Below, in pieces: positions 6,280-21,322 of a DNA stretch of 64,000 bases. The notes under the pieces were generated by a model that saw only the letters and a list, made by a program, of their open reading frames with translations, was not told the origin of the DNA and did not search any database. The position numbers and the translations under genes are program-made. The first letter of the stretch is position 1. Each line of letters starts with the position of its first letter. Source of the DNA: Erysipelotrichaceae bacterium (GTDB taxonomy: Bacteria; Bacillota_I; Bacilli_A; RFN20; CAG-826); the NCBI GenBank assembly GCA_015058945.1, contig SVBF01000018.1, positions 62,001-126,000 on the forward strand. Reading direction: 5' to 3'.

Positions 6280-7499
6280 TCCTTCGCGCGGACGAAGTCG
6301 TCGAACTCCCTCACTTCTTTAATCGTATCGAAGCAAGCAAAGACATACCAATCGCCCATGACCGCGGCGATGTGGCTCGGGTAACGGCCGGACATTTTGA
6401 TGTGCGGGCCGTATTTGGCGTAGATCTCGTCCACGCCATGGACGTAATGGAGTGTGTCCTTGCGATGAGAGGCGACCGCGTAATACTTCGGCAGGTTGAG
6501 ATTGACGTTACGGATTTCGTCATAGGCGATGACGTCGGCGTAAATCTCGTAGACGGAGACGGACGAACCATAATCGATAAGGTCTGGCGTATATCCGCCC
6601 GGCGCGCGCATATTGCATTCCAAAGCCACGAATTCGTCTTTCTTGGCTAGGCCGGGTTTATCGTGGTTTAACACGAAGAACTCAATGTGGAAGAAACGAC
6701 GCTTGATGCCAAAGGCTTTGACCACCGAACGCCCCACTTTCTCGAATTCCTTCGCGTCGACGTCGATCATCGGTTTGGAGAACGGCACGTTGACGTACAT
6801 GTGGTCCAAACCTTCGTTGACGATGCGATCGATGGGGATGGGGAAATGGTCGCTGCAGCAGAAGACAACGTCACCCTTGGAGTCGCAGATGCCATCAAAA
6901 GAGACGATTCGCCCATCGACGAACTCCTCCATGATGTAGGGCTCGGGGAGCGTCTTCTCAAAGAAGGCATCGACCTGTTCCCTGTTCTTTAGCGAATAGG
7001 ATTCGCTCGCACCGACGCCGATGTCCGGTTTGACGAAGACGGGATAACCGACCTCGGAGATGAATTCCAATGCCGCCTCTTTGTCCTGCGGGCCATGGAC
7101 GAGGAGATAACGCATCGTCTTTGCCCCGCCCTTGCGGAAGTATTCCTTCATCGCGGACTTGGCCTTGATGTGGGCCATATCCTCGGGATGAAAGCCAGTA
7201 TCGACGTTAAAGACCGCGCGGAGGCGGGCGTCTTCCTCAAGCCACCATTCGTTGTTGGACTCGATGAAATCGATCTTGCCGTATTTGTTTTGGAAATAGC
7301 CAACCGCCCGTTCCATCTCGGTCTTGTTGGTCATGTCATAGACGAAATAGATTTCGGTTAAGGCATTGACCAGACGCGGATCCAAATCGTAATACGGCGA
7401 ATCGACGATGCCTAAAACATTGATGCCACGGCTTTTGAGCGCTTCGACCCATTTGAAGTAGCGGCGGGGAAAATTCGGTGAGACAAATACGAAGTTCAT
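6276..7499 (-). CDS. ATP-grasp domain protein (carboxylate-amine ligase type)
   Basis: The 407-aa protein has an N-terminal Rossmann-like pre-ATP-grasp region (MNFVFVSPNFPRRYFKWVEA) and a central ATP-grasp fold with VFVKPDIGVGAS as nucleotide loop, PYIMEEFVDG, and the metal-binding FVALECNMRAPGG. These are typical of carbamoyl-phosphate synthase-like ligases that join a carboxylate to an amine through an acyl-phosphate. The substrate cannot be told. No pathway partner is adjacent. It lies alone between the rqcH unit and the ATP synthase operon, with its own leaderless-type promoter. Confidence 0.85.
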   Translation of the reverse strand: MNFVFVSPNFPRRYFKWVEALKSRGINVLGIVDSPYYDLDPRLVNALTEIYFVYDMTNKTEMERAVGYFQNKYGKIDFIESNNEWWLEEDARLRAVFNVDTGFHPEDMAHIKAKSAMKEYFRKGGAKTMRYLLVHGPQDKEAALEFISEVGYPVFVKPDIGVGASESYSLKNREQVDAFFEKTLPEPYIMEEFVDGRIVSFDGICDSKGDVVFCCSDHFPIPIDRIVNEGLDHMYVNVPFSKPMIDVDAKEFEKVGRSVVKAFGIKRRFFHIEFFVLNHDKPGLAKKDEFVALECNMRAPGGYTPDLIDYGSSVSVYEIYADVIAYDEIRNVNLNLPKYYAVASHRKDTLHYVHGVDEIYAKYGPHIKMSGRYPSHIAAVMGDWYVFACFDTIKEVREFDDFVRAKD

Positions 7500-7506
7500 A
7501 GCAACG

Positions 7507-7512
7507 AATATA
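7507..7512 (-). promoter_or_regulatory. -10 box of ATP-grasp gene, leaderless configuration
   Basis: The minus strand reads TGG-TATATT, an extended -10, then seven bases and the ATG at 7499. No Shine-Dalgarno fits between. Confidence 0.6.
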
Positions 7513-7585
7513 CCACCGCGCGCGAATATGACAAAGCAGAAACCCCTATCAGGTGCTTTCCTTTGGAAAGAATCTATATCAAAGC

Positions 7586-8014
7586 TTAGTCTTTCTTCGC
7601 GCCTTCGGACAATTCCTTGACGCTGATGCGGACGAGCGCCTTGGCGAGTTTTGCCTTCGCGCGGAGGATATCGATGCCGTCCTCATGTTTGGCGATGCGG
7701 TCGAGATTGCGGTCCCTCGCAGCGATCGCGCGGGCGAGATCGATGGAGTATCCGGGGTTGATTTCTTCGCAATAAACCGTCGTCGTCCCACCCTTGCGTA
7801 CATCGACGATACCGCCGAAAACCGCGTAAAAGTTGGTCTTTTCCTTGGTGACGAGCTTCAAGACGCCCGCTTTGGAGAGGGTGCCCATGAAGTTGGTGTA
7901 ACCCCTCTCGATGAACATCGGGCCACGGTCCATCGGCACGGTGAGCGAAAGCGCCTCGCCATCAAAGACGGGGCCACCCATCGTCAGGATTCGGACCGGG
8001 AAAGGGAGAGACAT
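7586..8014 (-). CDS. atpC: ATP synthase F1 epsilon subunit
   Basis: The 142-aa protein is the last gene of the ATP synthase operon. The N-terminal beta-sandwich begins SLPFPVRILTMGGPVFDGEA and the C-terminal helical part contains AIAARDRNLDRIAKHE. Epsilon sits on the central stalk, couples gamma to the c-ring and can inhibit ATP hydrolysis. It starts three bases after the atpD stop. Sequence conservation is weak, as usual for epsilon, but position and length fit. I see no strong terminator after it, only a small hairpin around 7555-7570. Confidence 0.92.
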   Translation of the reverse strand: MSLPFPVRILTMGGPVFDGEALSLTVPMDRGPMFIERGYTNFMGTLSKAGVLKLVTKEKTNFYAVFGGIVDVRKGGTTTVYCEEINPGYSIDLARAIAARDRNLDRIAKHEDGIDILRAKAKLAKALVRISVKELSEGAKKD

Positions 8015-8017
8015 GGC

Positions 8018-9454
<1,437 letters not shown>

Positions 9455-10321
9455 CTATTTGGTGGCGTTAGCCGAACCGGACACCACTTCCACGATTTCC
9501 TGCGTGATGGCGGTCTGGCGGGCCTTGTTGTATTCGATGGTGAGTTTGCGAAGCAATTCGTCGGCGTTGTCGTTGGCGTTATTCATCGCGTTGCGACGGC
9601 TCGCCTGCTCGCTTAATTGACTTTCGGCGATGCGGTGGTTAAGCCGCGCGCCGAGATAATACGGCATGAGAATATGGATCTGCTCCCTGGCGGTAGGTTC
9701 GAAAAGCGGCGGGCAATAGGCCTCATCCTCTCGCGGCGAAGGGGTGATCGAGACCGGGAGCAGCGTCTCCTCCTCCGGCACGAAGGAAATCGAGTTGACG
9801 TAATGGGTGTAGACCAGGACGACCTTGCGGATTTCCCGGTCGTTGAAGGATTTCTTGATGCGGAGGCAAAGCTCGTCGATTTGCTTCGGGTCCAAGGTCT
9901 TGTCGACGTTAGGGAAATCGAGGTCGACGTGCTTATAGGAGGGATCGTGGGCGAAATGGGCTTTGCCCCTTTCCCCTAATGGGGCGATGATGTCGTTTTC
10001 TTTGTCGACGTGCTCCTCGACGTATTTGAAGACGTTGTTGTTGTAACCGGCGCATAGGCCAAGGCTCGAAGTGATGACGATGTAGAGCGATCCCTTCACC
10101 TCTTCGTTCTCTTTGCCGTAATGGGTCTTGGTCACGTTATCGTGGAGGAAGAGCTCCCCCATCGCCTCGCGTAGACCGTTCGCGTATTCCTCGCCGGCGT
10201 CCAATACCGTACGAAAACGCTTGAGTTTCACCGTCGCCACCATTTCCATGGCTTTGGTGATCTTCTGCGTCGACTCGATCGAGGCGATGCGGCGTTTTGT
10301 CTTGTTGAGGCCTAGGGACAT
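9455..10321 (-). CDS. atpG: ATP synthase F1 gamma subunit
   Basis: Gamma is the central shaft that transmits c-ring rotation to the catalytic sites. The 288-aa protein has the two conserved coiled-coil ends: the N-terminal KRRIASIESTQKITKAMEMV and the C-terminal SRRNAMNNANDNADELLRKL followed by YNKARQTAITQEIVEVVSG. It begins two bases after the atpA stop, with a purine-rich site inside the atpA end. Confidence 0.98.
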   Translation of the reverse strand: MSLGLNKTKRRIASIESTQKITKAMEMVATVKLKRFRTVLDAGEEYANGLREAMGELFLHDNVTKTHYGKENEEVKGSLYIVITSSLGLCAGYNNNVFKYVEEHVDKENDIIAPLGERGKAHFAHDPSYKHVDLDFPNVDKTLDPKQIDELCLRIKKSFNDREIRKVVLVYTHYVNSISFVPEEETLLPVSITPSPREDEAYCPPLFEPTAREQIHILMPYYLGARLNHRIAESQLSEQASRRNAMNNANDNADELLRKLTIEYNKARQTAITQEIVEVVSGSANATK

Positions 10322-10323
10322 GG

Positions 10324-11826
10324 TTATTTGCTCTTCTTATATTCCTCGATGGCTTGGTCTAGCCTCGCGGTCAGATCCTCGTCGAAGGCCTTCTTCTCCG
10401 TGAGGTCTTTGGCGATGTCGGGATGGAGCGATTCGATCGCGGTGAGCAGCCCATCGAGATAAGGACGGACTTCGCTGACCTTTAATTCGTCGAGGTGACG
10501 GTTTTTGACTGCGTAAAGTTCGACGACCTGCTTCCACATCGGGTAAGGGTTATATTGCTTTTGCTTCAAGGTCTCCATGAGAACCGCACCATGGGCGAGG
10601 ATGCGCTTGGTGGAGGCGTCGAGGTCGCTGCCAAACTGCGAGAAGGAAAGCATCTCGCGGTAGGAGGCGAGTTCGATCTTGAGGGAGGCCGCCACCGCCT
10701 TCATGGCCTTGGTTTGCGCGCTCGAGCCGACGCGGGAGACGGAGAAGCCCGAATCGACCGCGGGGCGCTGACCGGAGGCGAAATAGTCCGTCACGAGGAA
10801 GATCTGCCCGTCGGTGATGGAGATGACGTTGGTCGGGATGTAGGCGGAGATGTCGCCGGCCTGCGTCTCGACGATCGGCAGGGCGGTGATCGAACCGCCA
10901 CCATATTGGGGCGCCAAACGGCAGGCGCGCTCGAGCAAACGGGAATGGAGGTAGAAGATGTCGCCGGGATAGGCTTCGCGACCTGGGGCGCGCTTCAATA
11001 GAAGCGACAAGGTACGGTAAGCGACCGCGTGCTTGGAAAGGTCGTCAAAGACGATGAGGACGTCCTGACCGCTTTCGAGCCATTCTTCCGCCATCGCCAT
11101 GCCGGCGAAGGGGGCGATGTATTGGTTGGGCGCGGCTTCGGAGGCGCCGGAGGAGACGACGGTCACGTAATCCATGCAGCCGAGCTCGCGGAGTTTGTCG
11201 ACGAAGGAGGCCACGGAGGAATTCTTTTGGCCGATCGCGACGTAAATGCACTTCACGCCTTTGCCCTTCTGGTTGATGATCGCGTCGAGGGCGATCGCGG
11301 TCTTGCCGGTCTGGCGGTCGCCGATGATGAGCTCGCGCTGGCCGCGGCCGATCGGGATCATCGCGTCGATGGCCTTGATGCCGGTCTCCAAAGGGGTATC
11401 GACCGATTTGCGCGTCATGACGCCGGGGGCGATGCGCTCGATCGGACGGGTTTTCGAATATTCAATCGGGCCTTTTTGGTCGATCGGGGCGCCTAAGGCG
11501 TTGACGACGCGTCCGAGCAAGCCATCCCCAACGGGGACTTCCACCACGCGGTGGGTGCGCTTCACGGTGTCGCCTTCCTCGATCTTGACGTCCGGTCCAA
11601 GAAGCACGGCGCCGACGTCCTCGTTATCGAGGTTCATGACCATGCCGGCCACGTCTCCGGGGAAAAGGAGCAATTCGCCAAGCATCGCCTGGTCGAGGCC
11701 ATAGCAAAGCGCGATGCCATCGCCGACGGAGATGACCGTGCCGACGTCATCGGTCTCTAGACGCGATTCGTAGCCTTTGATCTGTTCTTTGATCAGGGCT
11801 GAGATTTCGCTGGAATCGATTTTCAT
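10324..11826 (-). CDS. atpA: ATP synthase F1 alpha subunit
   Basis: Alpha forms the non-catalytic nucleotide sites of the alpha3-beta3 hexamer. The 500-aa sequence has the P-loop [13 protein letters not shown] near residue 170, the signature [17 protein letters not shown] and the C-terminal [17 protein letters not shown]. The ATG overlaps the atpH stop by four bases (ATGA), so the two are coupled. An AGGAGGAACCC Shine-Dalgarno lies inside the atpH end. Confidence 0.98.
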
Positions 11827-12368
11827 GAAAGGGTTCCTCCTTTGAGGTTACGCGTTAACCCCTGTAGTTTCGCTTCGAGGGAGCCGTCGAAGACTTTGCC
11901 GTCCACCGCGACCTTCACCCCACCTAAAAGGCGGGAATCGATCACCATGTGGAGGCTGACTTTGCTTCCGAGTCGTTTGCCGATCGCTTCCTCGATCTGA
12001 GCGAGGCGCTGCTTAGAGAGACGCTCCGCGCTATAGACGATGCCTTCCTTGACGCCTTCTTCCTCGTTCACGAGGGAGCGGTAGCAAGAGAGGATCTTCG
12101 GGAAGTCGCGCATGCGATGGTGGTCGGAGACGACGTAAAGGAAGGGGATGAGGTGAGGTATGGACGAAAACGTTTTGCCGTAGACGCGGGAGATGACGTC
12201 GCGCTTTTCTTTCGCCGTGAGGTTATAGGACTTCAGCAGTTCGAAGAAGTCGGGATCGGAAAGGAGGCGGTCCGTAAACGCCTCAAGCGCGTTTAAGGCC
12301 TCTTTCCTTTCCCTAGGCGAAAGGGAGGAGAAAAGGGCGTCGGCGTAATGAAGGCAAAACTCACTCAT
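11823..12368 (-). CDS. atpH: ATP synthase F1 delta subunit
   Basis: Delta joins the peripheral stalk to the top of F1. The 181-aa protein is helical at the N-terminus ([15 protein letters not shown]) and ends with the conserved C-terminal segment [19 protein letters not shown], the clearest family mark. Order and overlap with atpA support the call. It starts three bases after the atpF stop. Confidence 0.93.
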
Positions 12369-12371
12369 CCG

Positions 12372-12968
12372 TTACCCCTCCTTCTTCTCCAAATCCGCGA
12401 CGAAATCGTCGACGAGACGCTCGTTGTCCTTGGAGGACACTTCGCGACCGAGCACCTGTTTGGAGGCGAGCATCGCCACGTCGATGATCTGCTGACGGAC
12501 TTCTTCCTTCGACGCCTCTTGGGCGCGGAGGATGTCCTCGTCGGCTTTCTTGCGACGGGCCACCGCTTCCTCTTTGGCTTCGGAGACGATGCGATTGGCC
12601 TCGAACTCGGCGTTTTGCTTGGCTGCGAGGACGATGCGCTCGGCTTCCTTCTTGCCTTCTTCGATGGTCTGGTCTTTCTCTAAGGCCGCTTTCTTCGCGA
12701 TGGCTTGGTTGGCCTTCGTTTCCGCGATCATCCCGTTCACCGCGTCCTCGCGCTTCTTCATCATCTTGCGGATCGGTTTATAGCCGAGGAAGAAGACGAT
12801 GAGGAGCAACAAGATGAAGGCGATGAGCTGGATCAGGAAGTCCCAGTAGCCGTTCGGGAAGATCTTGCTTACGAAGTCCGAATCCTGAAAGGGAGATCCT
12901 TGGCATGCGGAAAGAAGCACCCCGCATAGAGGCAAAAGAATCCATAAGGTCCGTTTGGATTTGCTCAT
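12372..12968 (-). CDS. atpF: ATP synthase Fo b subunit with lipoprotein signal
   Basis: Subunit b is the peripheral stator stalk. The 198-aa protein has a membrane helix (LIQLIAFILLLLIVFFLGY), then a long charged helix typical of b (KAALEKDQTIEEGKKEAERI). Unusually, it starts with a lipoprotein signal peptide, MSKSKRTLWILLPLCGVLLSACQGS, with lipobox LSAC (Cys22). Lipoprotein-type b subunits are known from mycoplasmas. After processing, the N-terminus would carry a diacylglyceryl cysteine outside, with the stalk helix inside. This supports a Mollicutes-related affiliation. Confidence 0.94.
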   Translation of the reverse strand: MSKSKRTLWILLPLCGVLLSACQGSPFQDSDFVSKIFPNGYWDFLIQLIAFILLLLIVFFLGYKPIRKMMKKREDAVNGMIAETKANQAIAKKAALEKDQTIEEGKKEAERIVLAAKQNAEFEANRIVSEAKEEAVARRKKADEDILRAQEASKEEVRQQIIDVAMLASKQVLGREVSSKDNERLVDDFVADLEKKEG

Positions 12969-12986
12969 GGTTCTTCCTTTCCTCCG

Positions 12987-13271
12987 TTAAGCGCGCGCAC
13001 CCAAGATGAAGATGATCAAAATGGCCACGATCAACGCGTAGATACCGCACGATTCGTCGAGGGCGATCGAGAGGATCATCGTGGACTGGATCTTGCCACG
13101 CTGCTCAGGGTCGCGCGACATCGCGTCGATCGCGTGGCAGGCGATCCAAGATTCGCCGAGGGAGCTTAAGCCCGCGGTGAGAATCGCGATGCCCGCGCCG
13201 ATGGCGACGAGGCCGAGGTTGTTGTTGGCCGCGGTTTCCGCAAAGGCGACCAAAGACTGTAAAAACGCCAT
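12987..13271 (-). CDS. atpE: ATP synthase Fo c subunit, predicted Na+-binding two-carboxylate type
   Basis: Subunit c forms the rotor ring. The 94-aa hairpin protein has two membrane helices joined by the polar loop SRDPEQRGK. Helix 2 holds the ion site LDESCGIYAL with Glu73, Ser74 and Tyr78, matching the AESTGIY site of Na+ rotors. In helix 1 the position of the Na+-coordinating Gln32 (Ilyobacter numbering) is Glu40 in LGESWIACHA. This is the two-carboxylate arrangement described for Fusobacterium nucleatum. Asp72 directly before the key Glu is an extra acidic residue. I infer Na+ coupling from ligand positions. The N-terminal helix starts unusually late, after about 17 polar or mixed residues. 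Confidence 0.96.
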   Translation of the reverse strand: MAFLQSLVAFAETAANNNLGLVAIGAGIAILTAGLSSLGESWIACHAIDAMSRDPEQRGKIQSTMILSIALDESCGIYALIVAILIIFILGARA

Positions 13272-13283
13272 ATATCATTCCTC

Positions 13284-14120
13284 CTATATGGTCTTTTCTT
13301 TATTCATCGCGGGACGGATGGCCTGGGAGGTCGCGCCCATCGCGGCGTCTTCCGGCATCTCGTTGCCGATCCATACGCCGTTAAGGGAGGCGAACACCAA
13401 GGTCTGTATGTACCCGGAGAATAAGCCAAAGTAGAGATTGAGCACCGCGATGAATACTGGTGAGAACCAGATGGCCGCGGGGCTATCGAGCGGGTTGGCA
13501 TAGCTGCCAGCCCAGGAAGCGAAAACTATTACAGAGACGTTCTTTAGGGCCCAGTTGACGAGGCCGATGATGACCGAACCCGCCAAAGCGTTGCCAAACA
13601 TACGGAGGGTCGTGGAGATGATCGGGGTCCACATGGTGACGAGGTTGATGGGCAAGAAGAGGGGAATCGGCTCGATATAGCGATGGAAGTAACCGAACTT
13701 CTGATAACGCAGGGCGGTGAATTGGATGAGCACGAACATCACTAGGGACAACGCCAGAGGGAGCACCAAGGTATCGATGACGGACGGGAAGCCGGTGATG
13801 GACCAGATGAAGGCCATGAAAAGATAGACGAAAAGGCAGAAGAAATAGCCGGGCCAGTTGCCGGGTTCCCTGCCCATGATGTCTCTGGTCCAGTCCTGAA
13901 GCCAGGCATAGAAGCCTTCCGCGAGTCCCAAAAGCCCTTTTGAAGGCTTCATCGGATCATGGAAATGGGCTTGGATGCCGACGATGATCGCAAGGATCGC
14001 GACGATCCCCATGACCACCAAAGACGAAATCGTCGGGCCACCGAGACGAAAAGTCGGATCCTTGAAGGATTCGAGCATATCGGCCAATGGGTCAGCGGAC
14101 AACGCGAGGAAAGGATTCAT
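13284..14120 (-). CDS. atpB: ATP synthase Fo a subunit
   Basis: Subunit a supplies the ion half-channels beside the c-ring. The 278-aa protein has five or six membrane segments and the essential Arg in STTLRMFGNALAGSV. The last helices contain FSPVFIAVLNLYFGLFSGYIQTLVFASL, consistent with helix 6 of subunit a. It overlaps the upstream atpI-like gene by four bases (ATGA) and precedes atpE. Confidence 0.97.
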   Translation of the reverse strand: MNPFLALSADPLADMLESFKDPTFRLGGPTISSLVVMGIVAILAIIVGIQAHFHDPMKPSKGLLGLAEGFYAWLQDWTRDIMGREPGNWPGYFFCLFVYLFMAFIWSITGFPSVIDTLVLPLALSLVMFVLIQFTALRYQKFGYFHRYIEPIPLFLPINLVTMWTPIISTTLRMFGNALAGSVIIGLVNWALKNVSVIVFASWAGSYANPLDSPAAIWFSPVFIAVLNLYFGLFSGYIQTLVFASLNGVWIGNEMPEDAAMGATSQAIRPAMNKEKTI

Positions 14121-14608
14121 TGTTCCTCCCCTACCTCTTCTTTCTTTTCTTCAACGGGTTCTTCCTTTTTCGGAGCCGGAGCGGGTTCCTTACGGTTACG
14201 AAGCAACATGGAGCACGCCAAGGTGATCCAGGTGGGCATCAGGCCAAGCGCGGCCGAGATCAGGTTGCAATAGCCATGGGACAAGCTGCCCCATTTGAAG
14301 GAGCAAAAACCGGCGAGCACGAGCGTGCCGGCATATAGGCCAAAGCGAAGCACGCCCCACACGATGACGAGATAGCCCGCCTTCGTGGAACGGGAACCGC
14401 CAAGGAGATAGGAGGCTCCTTTGGCCATCGTGAAATAAGCGAAGATATTCACGGCCGAGCCGAGTAACCAACCGAGCAATACGCCGATGTTATCGAGAAA
14501 GACCCAGACGAGGGAAATCAATGCGCCGGCGATGGCGACGCATACGAGCAGGAAGAGATTCTTCCCCATCTCGCTCCAGGATTGGTATTTTTCGGCGAGT
14601 TTTTTCAT
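14117..14608 (-). CDS. AtpI-like four-helix membrane protein with acidic tail
   Basis: This is the first gene of the ATP synthase operon, 163 aa with four predicted membrane helices and a cytosolic C-terminal tail rich in Lys, Glu and Pro (KKEEPVEEKKEEVGEEQ). By position and topology it is the AtpI counterpart, a c-ring assembly factor, but sequence conservation is too weak to be sure. The ATG at 14608 has no Shine-Dalgarno. A poor -10 candidate (CAAAAT) lies 12 bases before it, so the operon mRNA may be nearly leaderless. Confidence 0.75.
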   Translation of the reverse strand: MKKLAEKYQSWSEMGKNLFLLVCVAIAGALISLVWVFLDNIGVLLGWLLGSAVNIFAYFTMAKGASYLLGGSRSTKAGYLVIVWGVLRFGLYAGTLVLAGFCSFKWGSLSHGYCNLISAALGLMPTWITLACSMLLRNRKEPAPAPKKEEPVEEKKEEVGEEQ

Positions 14609-14653
14609 GATAACGGCACTATTTTGTCACACGTCGCGCGTAAAAGGAAGATT

Positions 14654-14668
14654 TCTCCCTTAGGGAGA
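14654..14668. other. Short palindrome upstream of the ATP synthase operon
   Basis: TCTCCCTTAGGGAGA is a near-perfect inverted repeat between the terminator of the giant lipoprotein gene and the ATP synthase operon. No T-run follows it on either strand. It could be an operator for the ATP operon or a secondary hairpin behind the terminator. Confidence 0.25.
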
Positions 14669-14704
14669 GCGCTTCCACCCCACCTGATGCGTAATTACCC
14701 TCAA

Positions 14705-14737
14705 GACAAAGGAAAGGGCTCCGCGAGGGAGCCCTGG
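14705..14737 (-). terminator. Intrinsic terminator of the giant lipoprotein gene
   Basis: On the minus strand GGGCTCC-CTCGC-GGAGCCC forms a 7-bp GC-rich stem followed by TTTCCTTTG, 17 bases after the lipoprotein stop. Confidence 0.8.
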
Positions 14738-14753
14738 TAGGTTGAGATGTGGA

Positions 14754-17700
14754 TTATTCGGCCGGATGAACCTTGAGTTCGCCGATCGCGTAGTCGGTTT
14801 TCTCCTCCTCGAAGAGGATGTCGTCCGACTTGTTGAAGACACGTCCAGCTTCGGTGCCGGTCGTGATGGACAAGTCAGGCGTGGTCGTACCTTCGGCGCA
14901 GCGAGCGATGAAGAAGCCATAAGGCGCGGAGATGGCGGTGTTGAAGCCACCGAGGGTACCGGTGAAGGTGACCTTGCTCCACGTGCCGGTGGTCTTCGTA
15001 TCGTCATCATAGACATAGGCGAAGAGGACGCAGTCGTCCTCGCCAGCCCAGGAAGGAAGGCCAGAGATCGTGTAGGTGAGGGTCTCAACGCCGGAGACAC
15101 TGAGATAGCCGCTAGACGAGACGCTGGTCGGGAGCCTACGGACGCCGAGGACGCCATGGTCCGTGCCTTCGGTGACGTCGAGGAAGACATCACCATTGGC
15201 GAGCAAGGTGGAGCTGATGACGGCACCCTCCTCGTCGATACGGTAATAGGTGACTTCCAAATCCGTTTCGGTGAAATTGAGTTTCATCTTGCGGCTCGAA
15301 GCGATGTTGAAGTATCTCGGTTGGCTATAGACGTAGTTGGACGCATTGAGAGTGACGGCCGGGGCTTCTAAAGCATAGCCATTGATGCCAGTGACCGTGG
15401 CGGTGACGCAGGAGAGGTAGTACTCCCCAGTCGTCGAATTGGCGCTGGTGTAGAGCCCATTGGCGAAGACAACAGATCGACCCTTCTCCATAGTTAACGA
15501 GTTGCCGTTGGTCCAAGAGCCACTGGAGATGAGCTCACCGAGCGAGTCATAAAGGAAGTAAGTGGTGTACGCGTAGTAGGAGTTCTCCAAGGAATCCGCG
15601 TCAGCGCCATAGGAACCGGAGAAGCTAAAGCGGTATTCTCCGGTGTAGCTCGGGGCGAATCTGGTGTACACGTAGTGGGAGAGACCCTCATACTTCGCCA
15701 TGACTTTGGTTTCGCCTACGCCGAGCTTAACGGCCCTCGCCGGTGTGTTGTTGACAATGGTTTCGGCCGTGAAGGTGTGGTTGATGTTGGTCACCTTCTT
15801 GATGACGCTCTCGAAGTTCAGGGCCACCACTCTGTCACCGCTCTCTTCGTGGACGCCGAAGGGATCATCCGCGTTGAGAAGCGGGTTCTCTTCGTCGCCA
15901 GAGGTGAGATTGAACCAGCCCGGGTTGTCCTTATAGAGCAACTTGGCGTAAATGGTGTCGACCGGTTCCAAGACAGCCGACGGCATGAAGGTTGCGCCGG
16001 TGAGTTCGGGGTCGAGCTCGAGCGGCGTCGTATCGTAATAACCTTCGGCGTATTCGATGCGGAGCGGATCGACCTGGTGGTAGGTCCAGGAAGTGGAGGA
16101 ATAGATGCGGAACACATAGAGACCGGTGTGGGTTTCGTCCTTCTCGTGAAGCGAGACGCGATAAGCGGAAGTGTACTCGCTGGTGGATTTGACGGAGTAG
16201 CTAGCCGTGTTGACCGAAATATAGGAACCCATAGAAGCTTCGCCGGTGAGTTCGTCGATGTTGATGTTATACGCATTGATGCCGGTGAGGGCGTTAGGCA
16301 GGAAGATGAAGTAATCGCCGGTTTTGGTCGCCTCAAACTCAACAAAGCGATAGCTGTTGTTTTTGTTGGAGTGGACCATGTTATCGCCAACGACGGCAAT
16401 CTCCCTCTCATCGAAGGTGGTGCCGTCTTGATGCTCGAGGCCATCGGCGATGAAGCCGACGCTGCTCCTGGCGACGGAGATCGAACCATAGGTAAGCAAG
16501 CGGTACTGGAAGGTCGAGACGCCCGTCTCGGGATCGAGATAGCGCGCCACGAGAACCCTGCCATCCTGGTCATTGAGATAGCTCATGTCATACGCGTCGA
16601 CGATGCCCGTGAGGTTCTCTTTGGCGAACTTGGTGATTTCGCCAGAAGCGTTGAAGAAGATGAAGTTGTTCTCATCCTCCATGCGGAAGACGTTTTCGTC
16701 GATGCGCATGGCCGAATCGGTGATGAAGGCTTCCGTGCCGGTGGTGAGATCGATGCGGAAGAACTTGCCGTTGCGAACGCCGATGACCTTGTTGTTCAGG
16801 ACTTCGCTGGCGTAGATTTGGTCGTATTTGAACGGGGCCTTGACCTTGCCGTCATAACCGACGAAGCCGAATTTGCCATCGAAGGTGCCGAGGAAGCCCT
16901 TGGCGAGAGGCACATTGGTCCTGGAGTTGAGATTGCCGAGGTCGGTGATGGGCTTGCCGTCCGCGTCGAAGATGATGTTGGCGGTCGGCGAGTAATAATG
17001 CTCATCGTCGAGTTGCACCAAGCCGATGCCCATGATGTCGTTGACCTTGTCGTGGAGGACGAGGTTGCCATCGAGGACGCGGGTGAAGAGATGACGGGCG
17101 GCGATGAGTTTGTCCGCGGGGATCTCATAGAAGGAAGCCGCGAAGTAAGTGAACATGCCTTCCGCATTGCGGATCGGGGTGCCGGCGCCGGTGAAGAGGA
17201 GACGGGTCTCGACATTGGTGCGGGAACCGGTCTCGAGGTCGAGCCAAGCAGTCTCAAGGCGATACTTGGTGCCGAGGTTCTCGGTTTCCGGATCATGATA
17301 GAAATTGGTGGTCGGGACAAAGTAGTCGTAATCGGTGGCGTCGATCGGGAGTTCGTAGTGCCTCTGGACGAGGACTTTGGTTCCGAAGCAGGCGATCATG
17401 CTCTCACCCTGGAGCAAGTTGTTCGCGCGGACGAAGGCGCCTTCCTTATAAAGGATATAGGTACCGCCGTTGGTGCGATAAAGCTCATAGCCTTCCTTGC
17501 CATAGTCGGTGAGGTCGATCTTGCTGCCGCCGAAGACCTCGCCGAATTCCGGGCCTTCGTATGCTTCGTCGGGAATGGCGTTGATCTTGGTGGCCTTGCC
17601 GTTAGCGGCATATTCGAAATGGACGCGATCCAAGCCACTGCCAAGCGAGAAATAGAACTTCTCGTTGATGACATAATACGAATAGGTCGAAGGATCCGGT

Positions 17701-18197
17701 TGGGCCTCCGCTTTGTCTAAGAGTTTGTTGCCAAACGCGTCGATAAGGTAATGGAACCCTTCATATTGAATGCGGAGGAAGTACGGGATGTGGCCGTTGT
17801 TGTTGTTGTAGACGGAATAGGAAAGCCAAGCGGGCTCGAATTGCGGCGCGATGAGGTAATCCCTATGGATCATCGAATAGAAGCCGATGAGGCCAGCGGC
17901 GTTCTGGCGGACCAATAGGCCGAGGTTCGCATAGCTGGTGTTGATGACGTCTTCGTCAATTTCAAGCGCCGCGTTGACGCTGACGACCGAAGCTTTGTTC
18001 GGTTCGATTTCCTCCGGTTCGAGGATGTTGGTCTCAATGACGCTGCCGTCAATGACGTCACTGCCCTCGGACGGGGCGGGAATAACCGAAGAGGCGCTGG
18101 AAGAGCTCTCCTCGGAGGATGAGGATGCGGGTTGTTCGCCGCAGGCTGCCAAAAGCATGCCGCAAGCGAAAACGAGCAAAAGGTGTCGTTTTTTCAT
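14754..18197 (-). CDS. Giant lipoprotein with WG-repeat-like and pre-peptidase-like domains
   Basis: The 1147-aa protein starts at the ATG at 18197, preceded by AAAGGGGG. It has a lipoprotein signal peptide with lipobox LAAC, then a Ser-rich linker typical of surface anchoring. Residues around 440-510 (GFVGYDGKVKAPFKYDQIY) look like WG/KWG beta-propeller repeats. Further on, segments such as FEATKTGDYFIFLP and FAPSYTGEYRFSFSG resemble bacterial pre-peptidase C-terminal jelly rolls. It is probably a cell-surface binding protein, and I see no catalytic motif. It stands alone with its own terminator, and the upstream PFK gene is separately terminated. The function is unknown. Confidence 0.85.
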   Translation of the reverse strand: MKKRHLLLVFACGMLLAACGEQPASSSSEESSSSASSVIPAPSEGSDVIDGSVIETNILEPEEIEPNKASVVSVNAALEIDEDVINTSYANLGLLVRQNAAGLIGFYSMIHRDYLIAPQFEPAWLSYSVYNNNNGHIPYFLRIQYEGFHYLIDAFGNKLLDKAEAQPDPSTYSYYVINEKFYFSLGSGLDRVHFEYAANGKATKINAIPDEAYEGPEFGEVFGGSKIDLTDYGKEGYELYRTNGGTYILYKEGAFVRANNLLQGESMIACFGTKVLVQRHYELPIDATDYDYFVPTTNFYHDPETENLGTKYRLETAWLDLETGSRTNVETRLLFTGAGTPIRNAEGMFTYFAASFYEIPADKLIAARHLFTRVLDGNLVLHDKVNDIMGIGLVQLDDEHYYSPTANIIFDADGKPITDLGNLNSRTNVPLAKGFLGTFDGKFGFVGYDGKVKAPFKYDQIYASEVLNNKVIGVRNGKFFRIDLTTGTEAFITDSAMRIDENVFRMEDENNFIFFNASGEITKFAKENLTGIVDAYDMSYLNDQDGRVLVARYLDPETGVSTFQYRLLTYGSISVARSSVGFIADGLEHQDGTTFDEREIAVVGDNMVHSNKNNSYRFVEFEATKTGDYFIFLPNALTGINAYNINIDELTGEASMGSYISVNTASYSVKSTSEYTSAYRVSLHEKDETHTGLYVFRIYSSTSWTYHQVDPLRIEYAEGYYDTTPLELDPELTGATFMPSAVLEPVDTIYAKLLYKDNPGWFNLTSGDEENPLLNADDPFGVHEESGDRVVALNFESVIKKVTNINHTFTAETIVNNTPARAVKLGVGETKVMAKYEGLSHYVYTRFAPSYTGEYRFSFSGSYGADADSLENSYYAYTTYFLYDSLGELISSGSWTNGNSLTMEKGRSVVFANGLYTSANSTTGEYYLSCVTATVTGINGYALEAPAVTLNASNYVYSQPRYFNIASSRKMKLNFTETDLEVTYYRIDEEGAVISSTLLANGDVFLDVTEGTDHGVLGVRRLPTSVSSSGYLSVSGVETLTYTISGLPSWAGEDDCVLFAYVYDDDTKTTGTWSKVTFTGTLGGFNTAISAPYGFFIARCAEGTTTPDLSITTGTEAGRVFNKSDDILFEEEKTDYAIGELKVHPAE

Positions 18198-18294
18198 TTT
18201 TACCCCCTTTAGGTTTGAACTAAGCATAGAAGGTTTTGCGCCGTGAGAAAAGGGGGTCGATTAATAAACATCTCGCGCCCCGCGTGAAAATAAA

Positions 18295-18324
18295 GAAAAA
18301 CCGCCAAGCACTGGCTCAGCGGTT
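18295..18324 (-). terminator. Intrinsic terminator of the PPi-phosphofructokinase gene
   Basis: On the minus strand AACCGC pairs with GCGGTT across an 18-base loop region, ending in TTTTTC. It lies just after the gene's stop codon. Confidence 0.65.
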
Positions 18325-18333
18325 CGCGTTTTT

Positions 18334-19536
18334 TTAGCGCGCTTTGACTTTTTTGAGCACGGCGGTCTGATAGATGCCGTCCTTGAACTTGGGGTAAACC
18401 TCGCCTTGGATGAGCGGGGCGATATATTCGCGGAAGCTCTTGTCCATGTGGGTCTTGCCGGCGATCATCGAAGCGGGGACCTTTTTCTCGGCGTTAGCGA
18501 CCTGGTCGACGTTGGCGAGGGCCAAATCGATCTTGTACGGGTTATTGGAGAGGCGCTTGATGATGACCATCTTCGCGGTCTCGCCCTTAATGGCGGAAGT
18601 GACGGCGAAGGCACCGCAGGCGATGGCTTCGTCCTGGTCGGTCTTGGAGATGAAGACGGGGTCGGCACGCTGGGGCAAGGAGAGTTCGACCGAGCGGGTC
18701 GGAAGGCCGAGGCGTTTCTCGACGATGGTCGCGAGGGCGTCGGCGGCGCCACCAAGCTGGATGTGGCCAAAGGCGTCGATGCGGGTGGTCGAGGTGTCGC
18801 GCTCGAAGACGATGCCTTCGGAGATCGCGATGATGACGTGGCCCTTGAGGTCATAGATGGACTTGAGGTCCTTGAGGAAGGCGTCCATGTCGAACGAATC
18901 CTCGGGGAGGTAGATGAGGTCAGGGCGGTTGGAGTACGGGAGGAGGTCGACCGCGGCGGTAAGCCAGCCGGCGTTGCGGCCCATGATCTCGATGATGAAG
19001 ACTTTGCCCTTCTTGTAGCACTTGGCGTCGACGCAGATGTCCTTGGTGATGTTGATGACGTATTTCGCCGCGGAACCGTAACCGTTGCAGTGGTCGGTGA
19101 TGGCGAGGTCGTTATCGACGGTCTTGGGGACGCCAATGACCTTGCAGTCGATCTTCTGCTGCGCGAAGAGCTTCGCGAGCTTGGCGCAGGTATCCATGGA
19201 GTCGTTGCCGCCGTTGACGAAGACGTAACCGATGTTGTGGTTCATGATCGTCTGGCAGATGGCCTCGTAACGGAGGTCGTTGAGGTCCGAGGGCATCTTG
19301 TAACGGGCGGTTCCGAGGATCGCGCCCGGAGTCTGCTTTAAGAGTTCGATGGTCTCGTCTTCTTCCTCACGGAGGTCGATGAGGTCGTCCTGGATGAGGC
19401 CTTCGACGCCGTTGAGGGATCCGTAGATGCCCGAGATTTCCTCATGCTTCTGCGCTTCGCGGATCGCGCCATAGAGAGAGGAGTTGATGACGGCGGTCGG
19501 TCCTCCGGACTGGAGGTACACCATTGCTTTTGCCAT
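18334..19536 (-). CDS. Phosphofructokinase, probably pyrophosphate-dependent
   Basis: The 400-aa protein has the PFK fold: glycine loop YLQSGGPTAVINSS at the N-terminus, GGNDS at residues 109-113, the active-site motif PKTVDND at 137-143, and IEIMGRNAGWL. ATP enzymes have GGDGS and TIDND preceded by a non-Lys residue. Here Asp replaces the second Gly and Lys precedes TVDND, both marks of PPi-dependent enzymes, which phosphorylate fructose 6-phosphate with PPi reversibly. GGND rather than the plant-type GGDD is a subgroup variant. The start has AAAGGAAA upstream, and a TATACT -10 lies further up, so this mRNA has a normal leader. Confidence 0.9.
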   Translation of the reverse strand: MAKAMVYLQSGGPTAVINSSLYGAIREAQKHEEISGIYGSLNGVEGLIQDDLIDLREEEDETIELLKQTPGAILGTARYKMPSDLNDLRYEAICQTIMNHNIGYVFVNGGNDSMDTCAKLAKLFAQQKIDCKVIGVPKTVDNDLAITDHCNGYGSAAKYVINITKDICVDAKCYKKGKVFIIEIMGRNAGWLTAAVDLLPYSNRPDLIYLPEDSFDMDAFLKDLKSIYDLKGHVIIAISEGIVFERDTSTTRIDAFGHIQLGGAADALATIVEKRLGLPTRSVELSLPQRADPVFISKTDQDEAIACGAFAVTSAIKGETAKMVIIKRLSNNPYKIDLALANVDQVANAEKKVPASMIAGKTHMDKSFREYIAPLIQGEVYPKFKDGIYQTAVLKKVKAR

Positions 19537-19636
19537 AAATAGTTGTTTCCTTTCAAATCGGGATGTCCGATGCGATTAAAAAGTATACACGAACGCGCAG
19601 GAAAACATATCATTGATTTTGTAAGGGCTTACATTG

Positions 19637-19642
19637 TAGAAT
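19637..19642 (+). promoter_or_regulatory. -10 box of nucleoside kinase gene
   Basis: TAGAAT is preceded 18 bases upstream by TTGATT, a weak -35. It is followed by a leader of about 24 bases that includes the Shine-Dalgarno AGGAGG, unlike the leaderless promoters nearby. Confidence 0.5.
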
Positions 19643-19672
19643 TGCAGGCTTTCCAATAGGAGGTTCACCATC

Positions 19673-21322
19673 ATGTCATTCGTCGTCGAAATCCGCGACC
19701 ACAAGTTCACCTTGGACAAAAAGACGTCCATCCTCGATATCATCCGCCCCTACGACCCCGAGAAGCGTGCCGTCGCCGCGAGGGTCAACAACAGGGTCCG
19801 CGAACTCACTTACGAAGTAAACCGCGACTGCGTCGTCGAGATCCTCACCGTCAAGGACCGCGAGGCCATCAAGGTCTATGAGGCGTCGTTACGCTACGTC
19901 GTCGCCATGGCCTTCGCCCGCTGCTACCCGGAATTAAAGATCCGTTTCGCTTATAACGTCTCGCGTTCCATCTCGATCCATTTCCGCGATCAGAAGGCCG
20001 TCGCCACCACCGCGATGCTCCTTAAGGTCACCCATGAGATCGACCGCATCATCGCCGCCGATTTCCCCCTTAAGCGCATGAAAGTCTCCCTCGAGGAGGC
20101 CGCAAAGGTCTATGACGAGCTCGGCTATGAGGACAAGAAGGCCATTCTTCAATATCGTCCCGAGACCAACGCCCACCTCTATTCCTGCGACGGATACCTC
20201 AACTACATGTATTCGCACATGGTCCCGAGCACCGGCTACCTCCACGACTACAAACTTCGCCTCTACGCGCCGGGCTTCATGCTCCAATATCCGCGTTCGG
20301 AGGAAGAAGGCGTGATCCCGCCCTTCCAGGACGATCCGACCTTCAACCGCACCCTGAAGGAATCCCATGACTGGGCCAAGATCGTCGGCAGCGACACCGT
20401 CGCCGGCATCAACAATTCCATCAAGAACCGCGGCACGATCGAATTCATCAACCTCTGCGAGGCGCGCCATAACCGCATGCTCTGCGAACTCGGCCAGCTC
20501 ATCGAGGACGACATCGACGACATCTCCCTCATCTGCGTCGCCGGCCCCTCCTCTTCCGGCAAGACCACCTTCGCCAACCGCCTCCGCATCGAGCTCCTTT
20601 CCCGCGGCATCAACCCGATCCGCATCTCCCTCGATGACTATTACCTACCGAAATCCCAAGCCCCGCTCGATAGTGAGGGCAAGCCCGACCTCGAGCACAT
20701 CGAGGCCCTCGACATCGCCCTCTTCAACCAGAACATGCTCGACCTCATCAACGGTGAGACGGTTACCTTACCGAAATTCGACTTCCAGCTCGGCAAAAGG
20801 GTCGAGGGACGCACCATCCACGTCGGCAAGAACGAGCCGATCATCATCGAAGGCATCCACGCCCTCAACGATCGCATGACCATCGATATCCCGAAGTCGG
20901 CCAAGTTCAAGATCTTCATCGCCCCGCAGGCCCAGCTTAACATCGATGACCATAACCCCCTTTCCCTCACCGACTTGCGTTTGATCCGCCGCATCGTCCG
21001 CGACTACAAGTTCCGCAACGCCTCCGCCGAAGAGACCCTCTCCATGTGGCCGAGCGTCCGCGCTGGCGAATTCCGCTGGATCTACGCCTGCCAAGAAGGC
21101 TCGGATTATGTCTATAACTCCATGCTTTCCTACGAACTCCCGGTCATGAAGAAGTACGCGTTGCCCTTGCTCCACGCGATCGAGGTCGACTCCCCCTACT
21201 TCCCCACCGCCCAACGCCTCATCCGCATGCTCAAATATTTCATCGACATGCCGGACGAATGGGTGCCGAGCAACTCGTTGATGCGCGAATTCATCGGCGG
21301 TTCCTGCTACGCGGACGTCTGA
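19673..21322 (+). CDS. TGS-domain/uridine-kinase-like nucleoside kinase
   Basis: The 549-aa protein has an N-terminal TGS-like and threonyl-tRNA-synthetase editing-like region (MSFVVEIRDHKFTLDKKTSI), followed from about residue 285 by a P-loop kinase domain related to uridine kinase (VAGPSSSGKTTFANRLRIEL, then ISLDDYYLP). This architecture is common in Clostridia and Mollicutes and is annotated as nucleoside kinase. It probably phosphorylates uridine or cytidine, but the specificity is not proven. The start at 19673 is supported by TAGGAGGTTCACC. A bidirectional terminator follows. Confidence 0.88.
   Translation: MSFVVEIRDHKFTLDKKTSILDIIRPYDPEKRAVAARVNNRVRELTYEVNRDCVVEILTVKDREAIKVYEASLRYVVAMAFARCYPELKIRFAYNVSRSISIHFRDQKAVATTAMLLKVTHEIDRIIAADFPLKRMKVSLEEAAKVYDELGYEDKKAILQYRPETNAHLYSCDGYLNYMYSHMVPSTGYLHDYKLRLYAPGFMLQYPRSEEEGVIPPFQDDPTFNRTLKESHDWAKIVGSDTVAGINNSIKNRGTIEFINLCEARHNRMLCELGQLIEDDIDDISLICVAGPSSSGKTTFANRLRIELLSRGINPIRISLDDYYLPKSQAPLDSEGKPDLEHIEALDIALFNQNMLDLINGETVTLPKFDFQLGKRVEGRTIHVGKNEPIIIEGIHALNDRMTIDIPKSAKFKIFIAPQAQLNIDDHNPLSLTDLRLIRRIVRDYKFRNASAEETLSMWPSVRAGEFRWIYACQEGSDYVYNSMLSYELPVMKKYALPLLHAIEVDSPYFPTAQRLIRMLKYFIDMPDEWVPSNSLMREFIGGSCYADV

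What the first reader, a model, noticed from the sequence alone, without database searches (positions are those of the whole stretch)
12987..13271. c-ring subunit with a Na+-type, two-carboxylate ion site
AtpE has E73-S74 and Y78 in helix 2 (DESCGIY) and E40 in helix 1 where Na+ rotors have Gln32. Glu in both places is the arrangement described for Fusobacterium nucleatum. The extra Asp72 next to the key Glu is unusual. This predicts a Na+-driven ATP synthase in a Bacilli-like anaerobe. The Asp-Glu pair may be a further variation.
Basis: partly seen in the sequence, partly recalled or inferred. Interest (0 to 1): 0.7.

Follow-up and report, generated by a model that had tools for sequence, protein, structure and literature searches.

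The report
Sodium-type ATP synthase rotor, extra aspartate
This gut or rumen Bacilli bacterium has an ATP synthase whose rotor looks built to carry sodium rather than protons, and, together with many of its relatives, it carries an extra acidic residue right beside the ion-carrying one, which has not been characterised and could be tested.

Summary
The ORF at 12987-13271 (-) is AtpE (94 aa), inside a complete atp operon. E40 aligns without gaps to the Na+-ligand position Gln32 (Glu32 in Fusobacterium nucleatum); E73, S74 and Y78 align to E65, S66 and Y70. The best solved relative is the F. nucleatum c11 ring. E40, E73, Y78 and Ser/Thr74 are invariant in 105 distinct c subunits of the window's order, so this is a lineage trait. 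Asp72 is not a local oddity: 61 of 105 have it, at least six switches on the tree are forced, and I found it in no other c subunit of a sample of the phylum. E73 never varies while 72 does, so E73 is the ion carrier. Asp72 co-evolves with Ile43 in helix 1 (64/64 Asp rows have Ile; likelihood ratio 45, next best of 219 columns 20), so it probably packs inward against helix 1 beside E40. The genome also encodes an Rnf complex and a Na+-pumping decarboxylase. A Na+-coupled synthase is the best reading but not proven: the Burkholderia N-type ring also has two carboxylates, was predicted Na+-selective, and proved H+-specific; here the water-binding Thr67 is Cys. New variant of a known kind.

The parts
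12987..13271 (-). atpE, ATP synthase subunit c, 94 aa
   Evidence: ORF; PF00137 50.8 bits; AlphaFold hairpin pLDDT 85.5 matching 4bem, 1yce, 3zk1
13152..13154 (-). E40, second (helix-1) carboxylate at the Gln32/Glu32 position
   Evidence: alignment to 1yce/3zk1; 105/105 in order
13143..13145 (-). I43, helix-1 residue one turn from E40 that co-evolves with D72
   Evidence: 64/64 D rows have Ile; likelihood ratio 45.3, next best column 20.4
13056..13058 (-). D72, extra Asp next to the key Glu (I. tartaricus position 64, Ala in F. nucleatum)
   Evidence: 61/105 distinct c subunits of the order; at least 6 switches forced by well-supported branches
13053..13055 (-). E73, key ion-binding carboxylate (Glu65)
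   Evidence: invariant
13050..13052 (-). S74, Na+ ligand position Ser66
   Evidence: Ser 49 or Thr 56 of 105
13047..13049 (-). C75, position of Thr67 that binds the structural water
   Evidence: Thr 73, Cys 28, Ala 2, Val 2 of 105
13038..13040 (-). Y78, Tyr70 that locks the key Glu
   Evidence: 105/105
13284..14120 (-). atpB, subunit a (278 aa); R173, N177, Q239 = E. coli R210, N214, Q252 by motif spacing
   Evidence: PF00119 91.4 bits; R173 in all rows that reach the position, Q239 in all
13773..13775 (-). subunit a D116, acid found only in the window's clade, which lacks the D232 of the rest of the order
   Evidence: D116 94% against 0%, D232 0% against 100%
13425..13427 (-). subunit a G232 (E. 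coli H245 position by spacing from Q239); Asp in the rest of the order
14117..14608 (-). 163-aa ORF in the AtpI position, no Pfam match
   Evidence: function inferred from place only
12372..12968 (-). atpF, subunit b with a lipoprotein-type signal (LLSAC)
   Evidence: PF00430; sequence
11823..12368 (-). atpH, subunit delta
   Evidence: PF00213
10324..11826 (-). atpA, subunit alpha
   Evidence: ORF, 500 aa; named by sequence and place in operon, no family search run
9455..10321 (-). atpG, subunit gamma
   Evidence: PF00231
8018..9436 (-). atpD, subunit beta
   Evidence: ORF, 472 aa with GGAGVGKT; named by sequence and place in operon
7586..8014 (-). atpC, subunit epsilon
   Evidence: ORF, 142 aa, at the operon's end; named by sequence and place in operon

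Best explanation
AtpE is the rotor subunit of a Na+-coupled F-type ATP synthase with the two-carboxylate site described for F. nucleatum. E73 and S74 side chains, the E40 side chain and the L71 backbone carbonyl hold one Na+; E40 stays protonated and hydrogen-bonds to E73; Y78 locks E73 (inferred by homology). Primary pumps (Rnf and a biotin-dependent decarboxylase) extrude Na+, and the synthase uses that gradient or rebuilds it at the expense of ATP (inferred; the genes are shown). Asp72 is not the ion carrier. It faces inward, packs against helix 1 next to I43 one turn from E40 (shown as co-evolution, geometry inferred), is probably protonated, and through a hydrogen bond to helix 1 or to the bound water tunes the site or the ring packing (inferred, about 0.4 for this last step).
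For: All side-chain ligands are present in this protein and invariant in the order (Ser or Thr at 74). The closest solved sequence is the Na+ ring 3zk1 (E 1.6e-14), and the Na+ rings of A. woodii and I. tartaricus come next, ahead of all H+ rings. The genome encodes RnfC, D, G, E and A and a short RnfB-like ORF, with ApbE beside them, and the OadA, biotin carrier and OadB subunits of a Na+-pumping decarboxylase next to a PEP-carboxykinase-like gene; no membrane PPase and no second c/K proteolipid. D72 varies where E73 does not. D72-I43 coupling stands far above 219 other columns, and both losses of D within the window's clade (L139, L176, Asp to Cys) go with Val instead of Ile at 43. Helical-wheel angles put position 64 on the face away from the a-facing positions 62, 66, 69 and 73 (with crosslink positions from my own knowledge).
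Against: Cys75 instead of Thr67. The published list for the 67 position of Na+ rotors is Ser, Thr, Gln or Arg (PMC2359735), and the two-carboxylate Burkholderia ring with Met there is H+-specific (PMC5376962). Rnf can be H+- or Na+-coupled in general (own knowledge), and the decarboxylase is found in only 15 of 31 genomes of the genus. No ring geometry was computed.
Confidence: 0.66

Rival explanations
1. The rotor is H+-coupled in practice. The two carboxylates bind two protons, one of them transported, as proposed for S. pneumoniae and M. tuberculosis and as found for the Burkholderia N-type ring.
For: Burkholderia's E30/E61/T62/Y66 ring was predicted to be Na+-selective and is H+-specific. 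Schulz et al. state that all characterised rings, F. nucleatum's included, are intrinsically H+-selective. Cys75 weakens the water site.
Against: S74 and Y78 are present, Thr75 is the commonest residue in the order (73/105), Na+ pumps are encoded, and the nearest solved relatives are Na+ rings.
Confidence: 0.26
2. Asp72 is a neutral or purely steric substitution without a role in ion handling; Val, Ala, Thr, Cys and Ile do equally well there. (Compatible with either ion.)
For: Six residues are tolerated at 72 in the order, and side-chain volume partly complements residue 43 (Val-Val, Asp-Ile).
Against: Asp goes with Ile43 in all 64 tree rows, while similarly small Cys, Ala and Thr go with Val, Ile or Leu. 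A buried acid is costly unless used. It is kept through nearly all of two genera.
Confidence: 0.35
3. Asp72 is a working third carboxylate: it binds a second cation or a transported proton, or supplies the acid lost from subunit a's half-channel.
For: Three carboxylates lie within about one turn of each other in the modelled hairpin alignment. The window's clade has lost D232 of subunit a.
Against: D72 also occurs in lineages that keep D232, and two members of the clade have Cys72. The wheel places D72 away from subunit a.
Confidence: 0.08

Closest known systems
F. nucleatum c11 Na+ ring (3zk1, PMC3692424)
   Same: Glu in both helices, Ser66 and Tyr70 positions, Na+ pump in the organism
   Different: Ala64 there is Asp here; Thr67 is Cys; Gly motif degraded here; N-terminus about 8 residues longer here
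I. tartaricus c11 Na+ ring (1yce)
   Same: same ligand positions
   Different: Gln32 is Glu here; Ala64 is Asp; Thr67 is Cys
Burkholderia pseudomallei N-type c17 ring (PMC5376962)
   Same: Glu in helix 1 and helix 2, hydroxyl at 66, Tyr at 70, altered Gly motif
   Different: H+-specific, Met at the 67 position, belongs to a second, N-type operon; here the only atp operon found is of F type

Membership tests
F-type ATP synthase subunit c | two-helix hairpin, PF00137, in an atp operon | tested here: met
Two-carboxylate c-ring (F. nucleatum type) | Glu at the Gln32 position plus Glu at 65 | tested here: met
Na+-type c-ring (sequence signature) | Gln/Glu32, Glu65, Ser/Thr66, Tyr70 | tested here: met
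   signature from PMC2359735
Na+-type c-ring (sequence signature) | polar Ser, Thr, Gln or Arg at position 67 | tested here: not met
   Cys75 in the window; Thr in 73 of 105 of the order
Na+-type c-ring (function) | Na+ protection from DCCD/NCD-4, Na+-dependent ATPase | not testable with these tools
   needs protein
c11 ring architecture | GxGxGxGxG helix-1 motif | tested here: not met
   motif is A-L-S-G-S
c11 ring architecture | eleven subunits | not testable with these tools
   needs a structure or mass of the ring
N-type ATPase | second, extra atp operon beside an F/A-type one | tested here: not met
   single PF00137 match in a 92% complete genome

The most novel reading that the evidence does not exclude
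An order of gut Bacilli runs Na+ ATP synthases whose rotor site carries three carboxylates, the third (Asp72) gained and lost repeatedly in lockstep with a helix-1 Ile, as a natural tuner of ion affinity or pH response in a ring that may not be c11.
Probability: 0.25. Interest if true: 0.65.

Novelty: new variant of a known kind. Interest (0 to 1): 0.42.

Why it matters
It is open what decides Na+ against H+ choice in two-carboxylate rings, and whether Na+ F-type rings must be c11. This lineage varies position 72 (D, V, T, A, C, I) on a constant E-E-S/T-Y background, and the window's clade has a degraded Gly motif, so natural pairs of rings could test both questions directly.

Tried and rejected
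E73 as the extra residue and D72 as the ion carrier: rejected, E73 is invariant and D72 is not. Subunit a D232 loss as the partner of D72: rejected as a coupled change, it does not differ in any of the 6 independent pairs. D72 compensating for Cys75: no support, the Thr/Cys ratio at 75 is similar with Asp72 (43 T, 17 C) and Val72 (14 T, 10 C). A pattern search for A-x-D-E-[ST]-x-x-I-Y outside the order hit only unrelated proteins. Literature searches on an Asp next to the c-subunit Glu found nothing. No Rfam match in 7000-20000.

Full report
Observation. The ORF at 12987-13271 on the minus strand encodes a 94-aa subunit c in a complete operon: an AtpI-position ORF (14117-14608), a (13284-14120), c, b (12372-12968), delta, alpha, gamma, beta and epsilon (7586-8014). 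Pfam was run for a, b, c, delta, gamma and the AtpI-position ORF (the last without a match); alpha, beta and epsilon are named from sequence and place. It is the only PF00137 match in the 1.46-Mb, 92% complete genome. AlphaFold gives a hairpin (pLDDT 85.5) whose top Foldseek matches are 4bem, 1yce and 3zk1.

Spread. Loci from the window's genus, family and order gave 105 distinct c subunits: E40, E73 and Y78 in all, Ser or Thr at 74 in all; position 72 is D 61, V 25, A 8, T 5, C 4, I 2; position 75 is T 73, C 28, A 2, V 2. Among the c subunits fetched from elsewhere in the class, those with Gln at the 32 position all had Ala at 64. A DNA pattern for A-x-D-E-[ST]-x-x-I-Y, run over 395 and 392 genomes of the class and phylum (overlapping samples), hit c subunits only in the window's order; the other hits are unrelated proteins. 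The pattern is strict and other phyla were not covered, so 'restricted to the order' holds for this sample only. The taxonomic levels are the tool's codes; record titles of relatives include Candidatus Alloenteromonas and rumen Bacilli MAGs.

Evolution of Asp72. On a tree of subunit a (110 rows, two subunit-a columns left out), Asp at 72 needs 10 changes, at least 6 of them forced by well-supported branches. Position 43 is Ile in all 64 Asp rows and mostly Val or Leu otherwise; in 6 independent pairs the change goes the same way in 4.9 on average and never the other way (median sign-test p 0.06). A correlated-evolution likelihood test that I wrote gives 45.3 for c43 (nominal p 3e-9 on 4 d.f.; some rates sat at their bound), against at most 17.5 for the other 57 variable columns of c and at most 20.4 for 162 columns of a. 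The comparison with the other columns is the stronger control. This suggests a direct contact between residues 72 and 43, that is, Asp72 turned inward to helix 1 near E40. A helical-wheel count agrees: positions 62, 66, 69 and 73 (E. coli 58, 62, 65, 69, which face subunit a from my own knowledge of crosslinks) lie 40-100 degrees to one side of Glu65, and position 64 at 260 degrees. No ring model was built.

Function. Schulz et al. (PMC3692424) show that Glu32 stays protonated, that Na+ is bound by Glu32, Glu65, Ser66 and the Val63 carbonyl plus a water held by Thr67 and Ala64 O, and that only Na+ is moved. The window has every side-chain ligand. The same genome encodes RnfC, D, G, E and A and a short RnfB-like ORF (L254), and OadA, a biotin carrier and OadB (L255), next to a PEP-carboxykinase-like gene; no membrane pyrophosphatase in 31 genomes of the genus. 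Rnf is found in 24 and the decarboxylase in 15 of 31 genomes. This makes a Na+ cycle likely. Against certainty stands the Burkholderia N-type ring: two carboxylates, Thr and Tyr in place, predicted Na+-selective, measured H+-specific. It has Met where F. nucleatum has Thr67; the window has Cys, though half of its genus has Thr. The Mulkidjanian list for that position is Ser, Thr, Gln or Arg (PMC2359735).

Ring size. Changes in the helix-1 Gly motif can raise ring stoichiometry (PMC3692424, PMC5376962). The window has A-L-S-G-S at the five Gly positions, so c11 should not be assumed. This is inference.

Subunit a. In the window's clade subunit a has N228 and Ser, Gly or Ala at 232, with Asp at 116 in 94%; the rest of the order has H228 and D232 in essentially all and no D116. 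R173, N177 and Q239, the R210, N214 and Q252 equivalents by spacing, are kept. The position equivalent to E. coli E219 (182) is never acidic in the order. The access half-channel of this clade therefore looks rebuilt (inference); the change happened once or nearly so and cannot be tied statistically to Asp72.

Verdict. The Asp-Glu pair is a real, lineage-wide variation of a known two-carboxylate ring, probably structural or tuning in effect.

Noticed in passing
13284-14120 (subunit a codons 116, 146, 228, 232): The window's clade has D116 and N228 and lacks the D232/H228 pair found in the rest of the order: an apparent relocation of an acidic residue in the stator half-channel.
   Followed up: partly
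12372-12968: Subunit b begins with a lipoprotein-type signal (LLSAC); some genus members share it, others (e.g. L034, L038) have a different N-terminus without the Cys.
   Followed up: partly
13221-13271: Subunit c has an N-terminal extension predicted as a separate helix (residues 2-15); most genus members have 16-23 residues before the first conserved Gly, but four have 4.
   Followed up: no
14117-14608: 163-aa membrane-type protein with an acidic Glu/Lys/Pro-rich tail in the AtpI position, no Pfam match.
   Followed up: no
14754-18227: 1157-aa secreted lipoprotein with a Ser-rich start directly upstream of the atp operon on the same strand; function not examined.
   Followed up: no
L254:6738-7224: The rnf cluster has only a short RnfB-like ORF (CGACGYAGC motif, about 120 aa) in place of a full-length RnfB.
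   Followed up: no
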